From assembly GCF_016888135.1 (NCBI RefSeq), contig NZ_JACSWB010000293.1, positions 1 through 38,999 of the forward strand: a stretch of 38,999 nucleotides of DNA, read 5' to 3'. The notes under the pieces were generated by a model. It had not been told where the DNA came from and made no database searches. It worked only from the letters and a program-made list of their open reading frames with translations. Position numbers and translations under genes: made by a program. The DNA comes from Leptolyngbya sp. CCY15150 (GTDB lineage Bacteria; Cyanobacteriota; Cyanobacteriia; RECH01). Of the stretch, positions 22,862 through 38,999 are shown piece by piece. Position 1 is the first letter of the stretch; the number at the start of each line of letters is the position of its first letter.

Positions 22862-25800
22862 ATGGTGATGCGGTTTTCGTTTCGCGCAGTTCTCATAGGA
22901 GCGTTTGCAGTGCAGGTTATTGGCATTGCAAGTATTGTGAGCTATCTACATGGTCAAGGTGAGACAGCGTCACATCGCAGCTTAGTCCGTCAGTTAGCCA
23001 AAGCTGATAGCGATCGCGTTCAAGTCTATCTGTCGCAATACCTGCAGGTTCCTCAGCAGATCAACCGTCTCAATGCAACGGCGGTGCGGCTCAATCAGCT
23101 TGATGTCAGCAATTTACCTCAGCTTGAAGCCCACATTTTTGCCCAACTACAGCAGTTTGATTCTGTCAGCACCATTCTTTTTAGCGGGGCGGATGGATCC
23201 TTTCGCACCGTGCATCGCAGCATTGAGGATCGTCGTCAAGTTGAAGGGGGGCGATCGCAGCCGAATGGAGATTTTGATGTCTACCGTCTCAATGAGGCCG
23301 GCGTGCCGACCACATTAGTCACATCCCTGCCCAACTTTGATGGCCGCGATCGCCCTTGGTTTCGCGATGCGGTAAGAACTCAGCAAGCTGGATGGAGTGG
23401 TCTGTTTCAGATTGGGGAAGAAGCCTCGTTAGCCATTAATGCCTACTGGCCCATTTATGACAACAACACTCTGTTGGGGGTTTTTTCAGTCAACCTCAGC
23501 CTCCTTGATCTCAGTCAATTTTTGCGTCAGCTCGATGGCGCTCAGCAGGGGGTGGTGTTTATTGTGGATGAAAATGGTTACCTGATTGCCAGCTCTACAG
23601 ATGATCCACCCTTTCACGTCCAGGGGACAGGATTAGAGCGTCGTTTTTATCGCCTGCGTCCAGCAGACAGCGACCATGAACTCTTGGCAGATATCGCCAC
23701 TAATCTGCCTCAAGTGACCCATTTTTCGTCGTTAGATAGCGGCGATCGCCAGTGGGTAGACCGCATCGGGACAACATCCTATGTTTTAGATATCCATCGC
23801 CTTGATCCATCCCTAGGGCTGAATTGGCAAGTGGTGAATGTGTTACCAGAGTCTCTTTTTCTGGCAGACATTCGTGATCGACAGCGCCAAACCTTGATAT
23901 ACACGAGCCTTGCTCTAGTAGGAGCGATCGCTCTCAGTGCTGGCATTGCTCGCTGGGCAACCCAACCTCTCAAACACTTGCGAGACACGGCTACCCGCCT
24001 AGCTGATGGTGACTTTCACGCCGTACCGCCCCAGAGTCCAATCCTAGAGTTTCAATGGCTATCGGAAGCGTTTGAATCCACGTCCAGCCAGCTTCGGCAA
24101 TCGTTCCAAGAATTGCAGTCGCTGAATCAAACGCTCCAGAACAATGAAGCCAAGCTTTCTCAGTTTTTAGAATTAGCGCCGGTCGGCGTCTTGATCTACA
24201 GTCTAGATGGATCTATTTCCTATGTGAATGCTATTAGTAAAGCCTTATTTGGCTTTAAAAAAGATTCAGAGTCTCCAGTATCTAGTCTTAACGAGCTTTC
24301 CCACTATTATCCGCTCTACATAGCTGGAACTCAGCAGCCTTATCCACTTCACAATCTCCTCAATCCGCAAACGTTTTCAGAAGAATCTGTCACGTTAGAT
24401 GATTTGGAAATCCATCAAGAACACCACCTACATCTGCTAGAAGTTTCCGTATCACCTATGATTGGTCGGCAGGGTGACATCGAGTGGGCGATCGCTATCT
24501 TTAACGATATTACGACCCGAAAACAGGCTGAGCAACTGCTGGAACACTATAATCGTGAATTGGCCCACCAAGTTCAACAGCAGACCCTGGAACTCGCTAG
24601 GGAGGTGGAAGAGCGAAGAGTTGTTGAAGTCTCGTTACGTCAGAGCGAACAGCAGCAAAAGATTCTCTTACAGGCCATTCCAGATCTCATGTTCCGCGTT
24701 AGTCGAGATGGAATTTATCTTGGTTATGTTAAGACTAACGCCATGATCGATCTTTTGCCTGCAGATGAGAATCCGGTTGGCAAGAATATCATAGATTTTT
24801 TTGCTCAACACCATGATGTTGTTGCACGCCAGATGCATTTTATTCAAAAAGCCTTAGACACACAAGAAATTCAGATCTATGAGCAGCAGAACTACATAGG
24901 CGATCGCCTTCAATACGAAGAAGTGCGAGTGGTTCCCTGTAGCGATCAGGAAGTGCTTTTTATGATTCGTGACATCAGCGATCGCAAAAAGGCTGAAATT
25001 GCCCTGCGCTATAGCGAGGCTACCCAACGTGCTATTCTCCAGGCCATACCTGATCTACTGCTGCGCATTGATAGGTATGGTAAACGAAAAAGCTTTATCT
25101 CTGGGGGAGAGGTTCATCTACGCAAGGGGGTTCACCATGGCTTAGAGCAATCTATCTTCGAGACTCTGCCCCGTGATTTAGCAGAAACTCGGATGCGCTA
25201 TATTCATCAGGCCCTAGAGACTGGGCAACGCCAACATTATGAGCATGATATTGAGGTAGATAACGAAATCCGCCATGAGGAGGTGCGGATTGTTCCTCTC
25301 AATGCAGACGAAGTCATGCTGATGGTGCGCGATATTACCGATCGCACCCGAGCAGAAAGCGCTCTACGTCAATCACTTCAGAAAGAAGAGGCGATCGCCT
25401 ACATTCTAGAAAAAGTCCACCAATCTCTAGATCTAAAAGACGTCTTCTCATCTACCGTGGATGCAGTCCAGCATAGTCTCCACTGCGATCGGGTGTTAAT
25501 CTATCGCTTTCAGGCAGACTGGAGTGGAGAGATCCTGGCTGAAGCTGTTGCGCCTCAGTGGATTTCGTTGCTCAATGCAGAACGTGAAGATGTGATAACC
25601 GCACAAAATGCGATCGCCCATCCTGACTGTGTGATTACGGCTATGGCCCACCATGGGTTGCCTCACCATGATACTTATCTGCAGGACGTCAAAGCAGGTT
25701 TTTACAAGCAGCGCTCTAATCCAGTGAGGGAAGTTTCTGATATTTATGCTGAGAATTTTAGTGATTGTTATCTTGAGTTTTTAGAACATTTTCAAGCTCG

Positions 25801-27475
25801 TGCTTACATGACCTGCCCCATCGTCCAAGGCGACCAAATCTGGGGACTTTTGGCTGTCTATCACAACCAAGGGCCCCATGTCTGGACACCAGCAGAGCTG
25901 GCGATTGTCTGTCAGACGGCAACGCAACTTGGCATTGCAGCTCAGCAGGCGGAGCTGTTCCTGCAGCTTCAATTAAAGTCAACAGAGTTAGAAATTGCCA
26001 GAGAAGCCGCAGAAGCAGCCAGTAACTCCAAAAGTGTTTTCTTAGCTAATATGAGCCATGAACTGCGGACGCCTCTGAATGCAATCTTAGGGTTTGCCCA
26101 GTTACTCAATCGTGATCTAAGCCTGCCGGATGAGCATCGAGAAGCTATCCATACCATTACCCGCAGTGGTGAACATCTTCTCTCGTTAATTAACGGTGTC
26201 CTCGACTTATCTAAAATTGAAGCGGGACATATGAATTTAGAGAAGAGTTACTTTGATATCAGGGAATTTATTCGATCGCTTCAATCCATTGTCATTCAGC
26301 AAGCACGATCTAAAGGATTATCTCTCAACTTTGATCTATCGACCAATTTGCCAAGCTTAATTAAGTCTGATCCACAAAAGCTGCGGCAAGTTTTAATTAA
26401 CCTTCTCGGCAATGCCATTAAGTTTACCTCCTGTGGAAGCGTAACCCTCAAAGCTTCCATCACTCCCTTTGAATCGCCACAACCTCAGGGAAGCGATCGC
26501 CTGATTCAGGATAGTGCTGAACCGATTGCATGGTTGACCTTTGAGGTGATTGATACCGGAACGGGCATTGCTCCTGATGAGCAAGTTCGAATCTTTGAAG
26601 CGTTTGAGCAAACCCAATTAGGACAAATGGCTCCCGATGGTACTGGCCTCGGACTCACCATTAGCCAACGCTTAGTGGAAAAAATGGGTGGATGCTTGAC
26701 CGTACAAAGTACCTTAGGACAGGGCAGTGCGTTTCAATTCACCATTCCAGTTGGTATTGGCCAGACCAATGCTATCGAAGCCACCCAGGGGCAGGTTGCC
26801 CATCTTGCTCCCCACCAAGCTTATCGGATTCTGGTGGTTGATGATTCTATGATGAACCGCCAAGTCATGGTGCAGTTCTTAAGCAGCATTGGGTTTGAGA
26901 TCCAGGAAGCGGCCGATGGTGCTGAAGCGATCGCCCAGTGGCAAGCCTGGAATCCACACCTGATTTTGCTAGACCTGCGAATGCCCGTTTTCAGCGGCTT
27001 AGAGGTCATTCGTCATATCCGTAATTACGATCGCGAACATCCGCCTACCGGCGATCGCCTATCACCCAAAGTCATTGCCGTTACGGCTTCTGCCTTGATC
27101 GATCAGCAGCAGGAAGCTATGGCATCAGGCTGCGATGATTTCATCACAAAACCTGTAGATCTCTCTCGCTTGCTAGAAGCGATCGCTCAGCACATTGACG
27201 TAGACTATATCTACGATGACTTAACTATTGATACACCAAGTGCAGACATTCCATGTCTTGAACCTGATGCATTATCTGTCATGTCCCAAGAGTGGCTAGA
27301 CTCGCTCTACTTATCTGTACTGCGCTGTGAAGATGCTCAGGTCGATCAGCTTATTCAGCAAATTCCTAATCAATACAACGACCTCAAACAGGCATTAGAC
27401 TACTACAATCAACGGCTGCAGCTAGAACAGATTTTATTGATGATTGAGGCATATCAACCTCGCAGGAGTAGCTAA
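22862..27475 (+). CDS. Hybrid histidine kinase: Cache-HAMP-PAS3-phytochrome-like GAF-HisKA-HATPase-REC
   Basis: A 1537-residue sensor. A first membrane segment (about residues 9-28) and a second (about 343-364) enclose an extracytoplasmic Cache-type domain; HAMP follows (about 365-420). Three PAS domains start near 430, 600 and 725; the second and third are sister copies (LLQAIPDLMFRV / LQAIPDLLLRI). The GAF domain (about 843-1033) has cyanobacteriochrome-type wording: DRVLIYRFQADWSGEILAE, DTYLQ, VSDIY and LLAVYHNQGPHVW; the chromophore-cysteine position is Cys969, followed by Tyr970 instead of His. The kinase core has His1066 (NMSHELRTPLNAILGF), with G boxes DTGTGIAPDE and GTGLGL. The receiver has Asp1371 (LILLDLRMPVFSG). 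It may join light and ligand sensing. Confidence 0.9.
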   Translation: MVMRFSFRAVLIGAFAVQVIGIASIVSYLHGQGETASHRSLVRQLAKADSDRVQVYLSQYLQVPQQINRLNATAVRLNQLDVSNLPQLEAHIFAQLQQFDSVSTILFSGADGSFRTVHRSIEDRRQVEGGRSQPNGDFDVYRLNEAGVPTTLVTSLPNFDGRDRPWFRDAVRTQQAGWSGLFQIGEEASLAINAYWPIYDNNTLLGVFSVNLSLLDLSQFLRQLDGAQQGVVFIVDENGYLIASSTDDPPFHVQGTGLERRFYRLRPADSDHELLADIATNLPQVTHFSSLDSGDRQWVDRIGTTSYVLDIHRLDPSLGLNWQVVNVLPESLFLADIRDRQRQTLIYTSLALVGAIALSAGIARWATQPLKHLRDTATRLADGDFHAVPPQSPILEFQWLSEAFESTSSQLRQSFQELQSLNQTLQNNEAKLSQFLELAPVGVLIYSLDGSISYVNAISKALFGFKKDSESPVSSLNELSHYYPLYIAGTQQPYPLHNLLNPQTFSEESVTLDDLEIHQEHHLHLLEVSVSPMIGRQGDIEWAIAIFNDITTRKQAEQLLEHYNRELAHQVQQQTLELAREVEERRVVEVSLRQSEQQQKILLQAIPDLMFRVSRDGIYLGYVKTNAMIDLLPADENPVGKNIIDFFAQHHDVVARQMHFIQKALDTQEIQIYEQQNYIGDRLQYEEVRVVPCSDQEVLFMIRDISDRKKAEIALRYSEATQRAILQAIPDLLLRIDRYGKRKSFISGGEVHLRKGVHHGLEQSIFETLPRDLAETRMRYIHQALETGQRQHYEHDIEVDNEIRHEEVRIVPLNADEVMLMVRDITDRTRAESALRQSLQKEEAIAYILEKVHQSLDLKDVFSSTVDAVQHSLHCDRVLIYRFQADWSGEILAEAVAPQWISLLNAEREDVITAQNAIAHPDCVITAMAHHGLPHHDTYLQDVKAGFYKQRSNPVREVSDIYAENFSDCYLEFLEHFQARAYMTCPIVQGDQIWGLLAVYHNQGPHVWTPAELAIVCQTATQLGIAAQQAELFLQLQLKSTELEIAREAAEAASNSKSVFLANMSHELRTPLNAILGFAQLLNRDLSLPDEHREAIHTITRSGEHLLSLINGVLDLSKIEAGHMNLEKSYFDIREFIRSLQSIVIQQARSKGLSLNFDLSTNLPSLIKSDPQKLRQVLINLLGNAIKFTSCGSVTLKASITPFESPQPQGSDRLIQDSAEPIAWLTFEVIDTGTGIAPDEQVRIFEAFEQTQLGQMAPDGTGLGLTISQRLVEKMGGCLTVQSTLGQGSAFQFTIPVGIGQTNAIEATQGQVAHLAPHQAYRILVVDDSMMNRQVMVQFLSSIGFEIQEAADGAEAIAQWQAWNPHLILLDLRMPVFSGLEVIRHIRNYDREHPPTGDRLSPKVIAVTASALIDQQQEAMASGCDDFITKPVDLSRLLEAIAQHIDVDYIYDDLTIDTPSADIPCLEPDALSVMSQEWLDSLYLSVLRCEDAQVDQLIQQIPNQYNDLKQALDYYNQRLQLEQILLMIEAYQPRRSS

Positions 27476-27710: not shown

Positions 27711-27767
27711 GCAATGCTTTAATGAAGGAGCTTAGGTTTGAGATCACAACTCAGAACTGGATTTTAG

Positions 27768-28053
27768 AGTGTTGCTGAATCGATAGATGACTTGCCCTCA
27801 TCCCCAACCCTTTTCCTCAGGGAGAAGGGAGCTAGAACCCTCGTTCTCTCTTGCTGGGGCTAGGGCTAGCAGCAATTCTCATTTTGACCAGTAGCTTGTC
27901 CAATCTGCCAAATCCTGAACGAAAGAATGAACTTTTCCAAGAACTCTATTGATACTATTGTCGACAAGGTGGGGCAAGATATTCATACTGAGAATTGCTG
28001 TAGGGCTAGAGTGAGGGTGGATTTAGGACGTCATATCTGCATTCAGCAACGCC
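27768..28053. mobile_element. MITE-like element A (TTGCTGAAT family), interrupted
   Basis: The ends are AGTGTTGCTGAAT (27768-27780) and ATTCAGCAACGCC (28041-28053), inverted with two mismatches at the outer tips. The flanks GATTTTAG (27760-27767) and GATTTTAA (28054-28061) form an 8-bp target duplication with one change. The interior, with CCCTCATCCCC, AGGGAGAAGGGAGCTAGAA and GAGTGAGGGTGGAT, matches element B at 32163. With the nested 131-bp element and its extra 9-bp duplication removed, the host is about 146 bp, the same size as element B. No coding capacity. Confidence 0.75.
27870..28000. mobile_element. 131-bp MITE-like element nested in element A
   Basis: Perfect 12-bp terminal inverted repeats, CAGCAATTCTCA (27870-27881) and its complement (27989-28000), bound this element. 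The flanks are a perfect 9-bp duplication, TAGGGCTAG at 27861-27869 and 28001-28009. Element B has a single copy of this site (GAGGGCTAGGG), so the target duplication is confirmed by an empty-site comparison. It encodes nothing and must have been moved by a transposase in trans. Confidence 0.85.
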
Positions 28054-28218
28054 GATTTTAAAGCGTGTTGGGTCAGATTTAAGGATGTCTGTGCTCCTGC
28101 TGCTTCTGATCCACCGAATGGTCTAAAATGCTTGGAGCAAGCTGTGAGCATAGAATCTAGGGTGTACTTCATAGTGCTGAGACCAAAACGTTAACTAACG
28201 GCTGTGAGGAGAAAAAAT

Positions 28219-29823
28219 ATGTGCGCGTCTCGCAAATCATCTACCGTATTTCAGGACTTGGGTTGGATTGCTGGCATGATTGGGGGCTCGGCAACGATGT
28301 TGATGGTTACCCCAGGATATGCACAGACACAACCCGTGATACCAGACATGCAGGCAACCCCGCTCATGCCCGCAGCAGCGTCGCCGACGTCGGAGCTGCC
28401 GGAGGTTGACGATATGGCTTCTGCAACGGAGCCGGAGGCCGCGATCGCTATCCCTGCTGCAGCAACACCCGTAGCAGAGTCAGCCGCCCCCAACGACCTA
28501 TCCCAACAACCCGAGAGCCTGGCTGAACCTGCGGCTGCATTACCGTCCGAATCATCAGAACTCGAATCATCAGGATCTGAATCATCCGAAGACGTGTCTA
28601 GGCAAGCCGTGGATCTCTTGCCTGCCCAGATGCCCGCTCAAATGCCCGCTCAAAATCCCAGTTCCATCTACGCTGACGCGATCGCCCAGTTCAGCGGTGG
28701 CGGTGGCCCAGGCCCCTTACGCTTCTACCTCGGCACCGAGCTGCCCTATCCCACCACGCTGCTGGGGCCAACGCGACGTTTTTCGGTGTCAGCAGGTAGC
28801 GATCGCCAAGGCGGGCTCAGCATACCGGGCGGGGTGCAGCTTTCGCTGAGTGATTCCGATACCGTCACCCTAGAGGGGCGGGTGGGTACCTCCATCCTCG
28901 GGTTTGACCTGAGCTACCGCCATCAGCCAGAGCTAGCTCCTCTGGGGTATTCCGTGAATATCTTCAACCAACGAGCCTATTCCTCCAACCTGCGGGGAGG
29001 CGATCGCGATGTGGATTTGCCTGGCGGTGATACACCCTGGGTGCATCGCTTGGGTGTGGGTGCAGAAGTCTTCCACGCTTTTTCCCCTGATCTAGAAGGT
29101 GCCCTGGGCCTCACCTATCAGCGGGTATCGGTGCGGGATGATGTTTTTTCAAACGACCTATTCTCACGGGACGAACGGGGCAATCGGCTCACGGTAAGCG
29201 ATAGCGGACAGGATGATTTGCTGATTTTATCGGCAGCAGCCCAGTATGACACCCGCAATGATCTGATTAACCCTACCGAAGGCAGCCGGCTGCGTCTGGG
29301 GCTAGAGCAAGCCATCCCCCTGCAGGATGAGACGATTTCCTTTACGGGATTGACCGGCAATGCTACCCAGTTTATTCCCCTCTCCCTGTTTGGCTTCGCA
29401 GAAGGCCCCCGCACCCTGGTGCTGAATATCCAAGCCGGGCACATTTTCAATGATGTTCCTAGCTATCGAGCGTTTAGCCTGGGCGGCAGCAACTCCGTGC
29501 GGGGTTTCGATCGCGGTGATGTGGGCTCGTCTACCAGTTTTATCCAAGCCTCAGCCGAATATCGCTTTCCCATCTTTTCCTTTGATGCCATGGATGAAGA
29601 GATCGATGTGGGTGGGCTGCTGTTTGTGGACTATGCCAATGCCCTAGGCACCCAAGATGACGTGATTGGTCGCCCTGGCGTTGCCCGCGATAAGCCAGGG
29701 GATGGGTTGGGGTTTGGTCTAGGCTTGCGGCTGCTATCACCCTTTGGCCCCGTGCGGGTAGAACTAGGACTCACCGACAGTGGAGACTCGGCTGTGCATA
29801 TTAACCTAGGCGATCGCTTCTAG
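28219..29823 (+). CDS. Omp85/BamA-type outer-membrane barrel protein lacking obvious POTRA domains
   Basis: A 534-residue protein from ATG 28219, chosen because AGGAG lies 7 bases upstream (the in-frame GTG 28204 is inside that site). A signal peptide ends near VTPGYAQTQ (about residue 33). Residues about 34-150 are low-complexity Ala/Pro/Glu/Ser-rich, including PAQMPAQMPAQ. From about residue 165 to the end the sequence is beta-barrel-like and has the features of the bacterial surface antigen (Omp85) domain: QYDTRNDLINPTEGSRL, the loop-6 motif VRGFDRGD, and the ending FGPVRVELGL...LGDRF with terminal phenylalanine. Canonical Omp85 proteins carry POTRA repeats; I see none, so this may be a patatin-less/TamA-like outlier or an accessory porin. 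It sits in the outer membrane. Confidence 0.85.
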   Translation: MCASRKSSTVFQDLGWIAGMIGGSATMLMVTPGYAQTQPVIPDMQATPLMPAAASPTSELPEVDDMASATEPEAAIAIPAAATPVAESAAPNDLSQQPESLAEPAAALPSESSELESSGSESSEDVSRQAVDLLPAQMPAQMPAQNPSSIYADAIAQFSGGGGPGPLRFYLGTELPYPTTLLGPTRRFSVSAGSDRQGGLSIPGGVQLSLSDSDTVTLEGRVGTSILGFDLSYRHQPELAPLGYSVNIFNQRAYSSNLRGGDRDVDLPGGDTPWVHRLGVGAEVFHAFSPDLEGALGLTYQRVSVRDDVFSNDLFSRDERGNRLTVSDSGQDDLLILSAAAQYDTRNDLINPTEGSRLRLGLEQAIPLQDETISFTGLTGNATQFIPLSLFGFAEGPRTLVLNIQAGHIFNDVPSYRAFSLGGSNSVRGFDRGDVGSSTSFIQASAEYRFPIFSFDAMDEEIDVGGLLFVDYANALGTQDDVIGRPGVARDKPGDGLGFGLGLRLLSPFGPVRVELGLTDSGDSAVHINLGDRF

Positions 29824-31978: not shown

Positions 31979-32537
31979 AGACCTCCCTGTAGGGCAATTT
32001 AGTATGGCAAGGTAGAGCTAGCATAGGGCGATCGCGATTCAAGAAGACCTCAAGGGCTGAGATGCTTGGAGCAGGTTGAAACCTGATTGCCTATGCTTAG
32101 CGGTGTTGGATCATGATTCTAAACCATGGTTGTCTAATTTTCTTGAACCTATCTCCTAGTTCGGCATGACTGAATTGATAGATGATTTTCCCTCATCCCT
32201 AACCCTTCTCCCCAGGGAGAAGAGAGCTAGAACTCCTGTTCCCTCTTCCTAGGAAGAGGGCTAGGGTGAGGGCGGATTGAGCCATTCATACTTGTATTCA
32301 GCAACGCCCCTAGTTCTAGATGGGGTTAAAGGCAGCGATCGCTATCTGTATTTTTTCTAGGGAGCTAGATGTAACGCTGACAATGCCTGTTTTGCATTGA
32401 CTGCCAAATTTGTTGGATAGAGTTAAGATAGCTGATTGAGGAATAAAATATTTTTTCAGTCCACACCAGCTAATCCTTCTCTGATAGTTTTTAACTCTTC
32501 AGATGCCCTTATCTTAAGATCGATTAGGCATAAAGTC
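31979..32537. other. Gap with intact MITE-like element B
   Basis: No gene. Element B occupies 32163-32308. The rest is AT-rich and should hold the amidohydrolase promoter (near 31979-32100) and the 3' region of the MOSC gene. Confidence 0.55.
32163..32308. mobile_element. MITE-like element B with perfect 8-bp target duplication
   Basis: A 146-bp element with ends GGCATGACTGAAT (32163-32175) and ATTCAGCAACGCC (32296-32308), inverted with a few mismatches on the left. It is flanked by CCTAGTTC at 32155-32162 and 32309-32316. It shares its interior (CCCTCATCC, CAGGGAGAAG, GCTAGAAC, GGGTGAGGG) with element A. No coding capacity. Confidence 0.8.
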
Positions 32538-38902: not shown

Positions 38903-38920
38903 CAGCAATTCTCAGTATGA
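38903..38920. repeat. End sequence of the 131-bp element family
   Basis: CAGCAATTCTCAGTATGA is identical over 18 bases to the end of the nested element at 27870-28000 read from its right side. No second end or target duplication is visible before the window closes, so it is either one end of a copy running out of the window or a relic. Confidence 0.5.
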
Positions 38921-38924
38921 CGAT

Positions 38925-38999
38925 TCAACTGGTATTGGGCGGGATGTTTAGCTCTAGACCTTCCAGCATGAAGGTGAGCAGATGATCCCAACTGTCGAA
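38925..38999 (-). CDS. 3' end of a probable TetR-family regulator (partial)
   Basis: A minus-strand frame enters from the right edge and stops with TGA at 38925-38927. Its 24 residues, starting FDSWDHLLTFMLEGLEL, resemble the C-terminal helix of TetR/AcrR-family repressors, where wording such as W..LL..ML.GL is common. Family assignment from so few residues is tentative. Confidence 0.4.
   Translation of the reverse strand, partial: FDSWDHLLTFMLEGLELNIPPNTS

What the first reader, a model, noticed from the sequence alone, without database searches (positions are those of the whole stretch)
27870..28000. Element within an element, with a clean 9-bp target duplication
A 131-bp non-coding element with perfect 12-bp inverted ends and a perfect TAGGGCTAG duplication has inserted into a second MITE-like element. 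Element B at 32163 supplies the empty site. This shows two distinct non-autonomous families and their order of arrival, and suggests a transposase with 9-bp staggered cuts elsewhere in the genome.
Basis: seen in the sequence. Interest (0 to 1): 0.65.

Follow-up and report, generated by a model that had tools for sequence, protein, structure and literature searches.

The report
Miniature transposon nested inside another

Summary
Confirmed. Window 27870-28000 is a 131-bp non-coding element with perfect 12-bp inverted ends (16 of 18 matched) flanked by an exact 9-bp duplication, TAGGGCTAG. It sits in a 146-bp MITE (27768-28053) that has its own 8-bp duplication. Element B (32163-32308, 146 bp) is an uninterrupted sister copy.

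The insert is mobile. Two more intact 131-bp copies in this genome and two in a congener have exact 9-bp duplications at unrelated sites. Two further copies split across contigs pair up by an exact 9-bp duplication. A congener's orthologous locus lacks both elements, so the host element arrived first.

The predicted source is found. An autonomous IS with ends CAGCAATTCTCAGTATGA lies in the same genome; one end is at this window's right edge (38903-38999). Three copies split across contigs show exact 9-bp duplications. Its transposase, readable in a congener, belongs to an ISNCY-labelled group found in cyanobacteria, proteobacteria, Chloroflexota, spirochaetes and ANME archaea, with the same ends and 9-bp duplications. 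Its predicted fold matches Tn5 transposase (Z 23), which also duplicates 9 bp.

Verdict: a new member of a known kind, well supported, of modest interest.

The parts
27870..28000 (+). 131-bp non-autonomous element (insert)
   Evidence: 12-bp perfect terminal inverted repeats; intact homologous copies elsewhere in own genome and congener with exact 9-bp duplications
27870..27887 (+). left terminal inverted repeat of insert, CAGCAATTCTCATTTTGA
   Evidence: 18/18 identical to ISNCY-type IS ends of Nostoc, Anabaena, Calothrix and Desulfoferrobacter
27983..28000 (-). right terminal inverted repeat of insert, CAGCAATTCTCAGTATGA read on the minus strand
   Evidence: 18/18 identical to both ends of the autonomous IS in the same genome
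27861..27869 (.). left 9-bp target duplication TAGGGCTAG
   Evidence: exact match to 28001-28009
28001..28009 (.). right 9-bp target duplication TAGGGCTAG
   Evidence: exact match to 27861-27869
27768..28053 (+). host MITE, 146 bp plus the 140-bp interruption; ends AGTGTTGCTGAAT / ATTCAGCAACGCC
   Evidence: 79% identical to element B without gaps; host family has 25 listed members with both ends and an exact or one-mismatch duplication, this one included
27760..27767 (.). left 8-bp duplication of the host MITE, GATTTTAG
   Evidence: 7/8 to 28054-28061; empty site in congener reads GATTTTAA
28054..28061 (.). right 8-bp duplication of the host MITE, GATTTTAA
32163..32308 (+). element B, uninterrupted 146-bp sister copy of the host MITE
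   Evidence: exact 8-bp duplication CCTAGTTC at 32155-32162 and 32309-32316
38903..38999 (-). transposase-3' end of an autonomous ISNCY-type IS with the same ends, cut by the contig end
   Evidence: 96% over 24 aa to the transposase C terminus (residues 412-435) on the minus strand; 18 bp identical to insert end

Best explanation
The 131-bp sequence is a MITE: a non-autonomous element moved in trans by the transposase of an ISNCY-type insertion sequence resident in the same genome. The transposase recognises the ~18-bp end (CAGCAATTCTCA plus about six more bases), excises or copies the element with Tn5-like DDE chemistry (inferred from the predicted fold), and joins it to a target cut with a 9-bp stagger, which repair turns into the 9-bp duplication (duplication shown, stagger follows from it). 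It landed in an older MITE of a different family that makes 8-bp duplications, in the gap between a sensor kinase gene and an Omp85-type gene. Shown: ends, duplications, family, matching IS ends in the same genome, empty site. Inferred: that this transposase moved the element, and that the route is cut-and-paste.
For: Two other intact 131-bp copies in the same genome (88% and 75% identical), each with exact 9-bp duplications ATCCATAAC and CATCTTAGG, and two in congener G002, CGCAGGGAT and GAGAAGAAG. Two contig-split copies pair by exact 9-bp duplications (L005/L010, L008/L016). IS ends in the same genome pair three times by exact 9-bp duplications (L032/L044, L034/L057, L039/L040) and match the insert's right end 18/18. 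Transposase read in a congener with D127, D216, E336 invariant among relatives. Relatives in Arthrospira, Calothrix, Anabaena, Nostoc, Desulfoferrobacter, ANME-2 and others carry the same ends with 9-bp duplications. Predicted structure pLDDT 90.6; matches Tn5 transposase over 358 residues, Z 23.1. Congener locus lacks host and insert.
Against: The insert shares only the terminal 16-19 bp with any IS found; the interior is unrelated, so it is not a simple internal deletion of a known copy. The IS body is missing from this assembly (only its ends survive at contig edges, plus transposase fragments), so an intact transposase gene in this genome is inferred. No transposition was observed.
Confidence: 0.94

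Rival explanations
1. The insert is moved by another transposase in the genome with similar ends (for example a Nostoc-type ISNCY element whose ends read CAGCAATTCTCATTTTGA) and not by the IS whose end lies at the window's right edge.
For: The insert's left end matches Nostoc, Anabaena and Calothrix IS ends 18/18 but the resident IS exactly only over its first 12 bp; other transposase fragments of the family exist in the genome (C279, C232, C207).
Against: The right end matches the resident IS 18/18 and no complete Nostoc-type IS was found in the genome.
Confidence: 0.2
2. The 131 bp is an ancestral part of the host repeat that the other copies lost by deletion.
For: None beyond its position inside the host element.
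Against: Exact 9-bp duplication around it; intact host copies, most of 129-147 bp, lack it; homologous 131-bp copies lie at unrelated sites, each with its own duplication.
Confidence: 0.01
3. The 131-bp element is kept because it does something for the host, such as acting as a structured RNA, terminator or regulatory site between the flanking genes.
For: Intergenic position upstream of an Omp85-type gene; copies in three genomes of one genus.
Against: Single-strand DNA fold only 1.6 sd better than shuffles, mostly from the ends; absent at this locus in a congener. Expression and conserved neighbours were not examined.
Confidence: 0.04

Closest known systems
MITEs derived from bacterial insertion sequences, such as MITEAba12 in Acinetobacter (PMC6382973, abstract only read)
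   Same: short, non-coding, inverted ends, IS-derived and non-autonomous, several copies
   Different: here the ends belong to an ISNCY-type IS and the duplication is 9 bp; interior unrelated to the IS found
ISNCY-labelled insertion sequences of cyanobacteria (Gloeothece verrucosa WP_013335080, so named in the record; ISMae2 of Microcystis named as ISNCY-like in PMC11448079)
   Same: the transposase in question is 47% identical to the Gloeothece protein; Gloeothece IS ends match the insert's left end over 17-18 bp
   Different: whether the group is the ISMae2 group of ISfinder could not be tested here
Tn5 / IS50 (IS4 family)
   Same: predicted fold over 358 residues, Z 23.1; R-W-x-x-E motif; 9-bp duplications; end of about 18-19 bp (Tn5 facts from established knowledge)
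   Different: no sequence similarity above family cut-offs; the YREK signature is not fully met; ends differ in sequence

Membership tests
Bacterial MITE | short element without coding capacity, with terminal inverted repeats | tested here: met
   131 bp, 12-bp perfect ends, no ORF of 80 aa or more
Bacterial MITE | target duplication of constant length at several independent sites | tested here: met
   5 intact 131-bp copies and 2 contig-split copies with exact 9-bp duplications in two genomes
Bacterial MITE | ends shared with an autonomous IS in the same genome | tested here: met
   18/18 at the right end, 12/12 at the left end; IS copies make exact 9-bp duplications
Bacterial MITE | mobilised in trans by that IS | not testable with these tools
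   needs a transposition assay
ISNCY (insertion sequences not yet classified) for the parent IS | named as ISNCY in public annotation | tested here: inconclusive
   one relative at 47% identity is annotated ISNCY family transposase; no ISNCY model of NCBIfam matches any of 33 members
IS4 family for the parent transposase | match to a curated IS4 model above its cut-off | tested here: not met
   for member 1 the best IS4 model scores 18.4 bits against a cut-off of 152; best E among 33 members is 7.9e-7
IS4 family for the parent transposase | Y-(2)-R-(3)-E-(6)-K signature | tested here: not met
   R332-(3)-E336 is present, but the Y position is G329 and the next conserved K is one residue too far, K344; the signature is quoted from memory
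Tn5-type DDE transposase fold for the parent transposase | RNase-H-like core with a beta-strand insertion, and the DDE triad | tested here: met
   Foldseek E 6.4e-10 to 4dm0, VIA Z 23.1, rmsd 4.3 over 358 residues; invariant D127, D216, E336
IS6-family origin of the host MITE (considered) | IS6/IS240 transposase present in the genome | tested here: not met
   no match to PF13610 in the own genome assembly

The most novel reading that the evidence does not exclude
The parent elements form a distinct, widespread IS family (ends CAGCAATTCTCA, 9-bp duplication, about 435-aa Tn5-fold transposase without the canonical IS4 signature) that is now lumped under 'not classified yet', and the 131-bp MITE and its longer relatives are its first described non-autonomous derivatives in cyanobacteria.
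Probability: 0.35. Interest if true: 0.4.

Novelty: new member of a known kind. Interest (0 to 1): 0.3.

Why it matters
It gives a complete, checkable case in a poorly studied cyanobacterial genus: two MITE families with different duplication lengths, their relative order, an empty site in a relative, and the transposase family that probably drives one of them. It also ties an IS group left in the 'not classified yet' bin to the Tn5 fold and its 9-bp stagger.

Tried and rejected
An ancestral-part reading of the 131 bp was rejected (independent copies with their own duplications). Looking for the IS body in this genome's own assembly failed: only ends at contig edges and transposase fragments are there, and C78 holds a truncated copy next to another element. 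The interior of the insert matches no IS interior, so a simple internal-deletion origin has no support. IS6 as the source of the host MITE: no IS240-type transposase found; no autonomous partner of the host family was identified. A literature search for the 12-bp end found no transposon paper; papers on ISMae2 give no ends or duplication length. A sequence search of solved structures gave nothing, before the fold search succeeded. Searches of the family and the order held only four genomes, so spread beyond the genus is untested at DNA level.

Full report
What is there. Window 27870-28000 is 131 bp, begins CAGCAATTCTCATTTTGA and ends TCATACTGAGAATTGCTG: 12 bp of perfect inverted repeat and 16 of 18 overall. 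TAGGGCTAG stands directly on both sides, 27861-27869 and 28001-28009. A scan of the whole window for exact inverted ends of 9 bp or more next to an exact 9-bp duplication finds only this place; in 200 first-order random sequences, with ends relaxed to 8 bp, the same test gave one hit in all.

The host element. Taking out the insert and one copy of TAGGGCTAG leaves 146 bp (27768-28053) that align without a gap to element B, 32163-32308, at 115/146 identity. The family is common in this genome: 20 or so long matches, and 25 listed members, the window's two included, with both ends and a duplication (8 bp as a rule) that is exact or has one mismatch. Ends read GGC(A/G)TTGCTGAAT; the exact 13-mer GGCGTTGCTGAAT occurs 70 times, against none for the reversed control. 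The window's host copy has GATTTTAG / GATTTTAA; element B has CCTAGTTC twice.

Order of arrival. Congener G001 (its transposase contig is identical in length and protein to a contig of Leptolyngbya sp. DLM2.Bin15) carries the same locus with neither element: window sequence up to the GATTTTA repeat continues directly into the sequence after it, and the unoccupied site reads GATTTTAA. The simplest reading is that the host MITE entered after the split from that relative, and the 131-bp element entered the host later. The single mismatch in the host's duplication and the exact duplication of the insert agree with that order, though two short sequences cannot date anything.

The insert is a mobile family. 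Own genome: intact 131-bp copies at C123 (88%, ATCCATAAC) and C223 (75%, CATCTTAGG). More copies are cut at contig edges about 97 bp in, as expected when a repeat breaks a short-read assembly; two pairs of such edges join by exact 9-bp duplications, L005/L010 TGGGCAATC and L008/L016 GGTGAAAGA. Congener G002 has two intact copies with CGCAGGGAT and GAGAAGAAG. One longer relative, 269 bp, has a 9-bp duplication with one mismatch.

The source of the transposase. Two other kinds of contig edge in this genome start with CAGCAATTCTCAGTATGAC, one continuing GATTCAACTGG and one AAAAGGCTG. They are the two ends of one IS: three pairs join by exact 9-bp duplications, L032/L044, L034/L057, L039/L040. The window's own right edge, 38903-38999, is such an end and codes on the minus strand for the last 24 residues of the transposase. 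The IS body is not in this assembly, but congener G001 has it from near its start, with a 435-codon reading frame. The insert's right end matches this IS over 18 of 18 bp; its left end matches it exactly over the first 12 bp and matches IS ends from Nostoc, Anabaena and Calothrix over 18 of 18. Beyond the ends no similarity was found.

The IS family. Relatives at about 47-89% identity occur in many cyanobacteria, Methylococcaceae, Desulfobacterota, Chloroflexota, spirochaetes and an ANME-2 archaeon. Where both ends could be placed, they read CAGCAATTCTCA or close to it and flank exact 9-bp duplications: about eleven Arthrospira sp. PCC 9108 copies, four Desulfoferrobacter copies, Calothrix, Anabaena, Nostoc, ANME-2 and others. 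Some copies gave no such pair. One relative is annotated 'ISNCY family transposase'. No curated NCBIfam model is met by the query, and Pfam DDE_Tnp_1 matches weakly.

Mechanism. The alignment of 33 transposases has invariant D127, D216 and E336. The predicted structure (pLDDT 90.6, pTM 0.90) matches Tn5 transposase best, E 6.4e-10 and Z 23.1 over 358 residues, well above the next distinct folds, piggyBac at 14 and integrases near 9. From established knowledge, Tn5 moves by cut-and-paste, uses a 19-bp end and leaves 9-bp duplications. The most likely account is that the IS transposase pairs the two ends of the MITE, cuts it out, and inserts it with a 9-bp stagger. The stagger follows from the duplications; the excision route is inferred. 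A shared fold does not prove a shared mechanism.

Membership. The 131-bp element meets the sequence criteria of a bacterial MITE; mobilisation in trans was not tested. The parent is not filed under IS4: curated models are not met and the Y-R-E-K spacing is off. It works like Tn5 as far as sequence and fold can show. 'ISNCY' is a holding name, and ISfinder was not available to give a group.

Verdict. The feature is an ordinary kind of mobile DNA, unusually well documented, and scores modestly.

Noticed in passing
window 38903-38999: The window's right edge is one end of the autonomous ISNCY-type IS; the contig probably breaks there because the IS is repeated. Its flank GGGACGGGC has no matching partner among the other IS ends found.
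   Followed up: partly
own genome, L075-L104 and L217-L246: Host MITE family: 70 exact GGCGTTGCTGAAT ends in the genome, elements of 64 to 227 bp with 8-bp duplications, no autonomous partner identified.
   Followed up: partly
L018 1501-1769, L024 and L026 from 1501: Longer relatives of the insert (243-269 bp where both ends are found) carry an internal module like GTTCCTACGCTGGGCGTGGGAATGCTCC; L018 has a 9-bp duplication with one mismatch.
   Followed up: partly
L017 (G000:C95 1-152): A copy of the insert family is interrupted by yet another sequence starting GGCGTTGCGCAGTAGAG, possibly a further layer of nesting.
   Followed up: no
G000:C135 85776-85942 (L037, L080): An insert-type end lies about a dozen bases from a host-family MITE, so the two families meet at a second place.
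   Followed up: no
L049 (G000:C78): A truncated IS end (about 186 bp) directly abuts sequence that recurs at several contigs; the contig's two ends hold DDE_Tnp_1_3-like transposase pieces.
   Followed up: no
window 22862-27475 and 28204-29823: The nested elements lie between a multi-domain sensor kinase gene and an Omp85-superfamily gene.
   Followed up: partly
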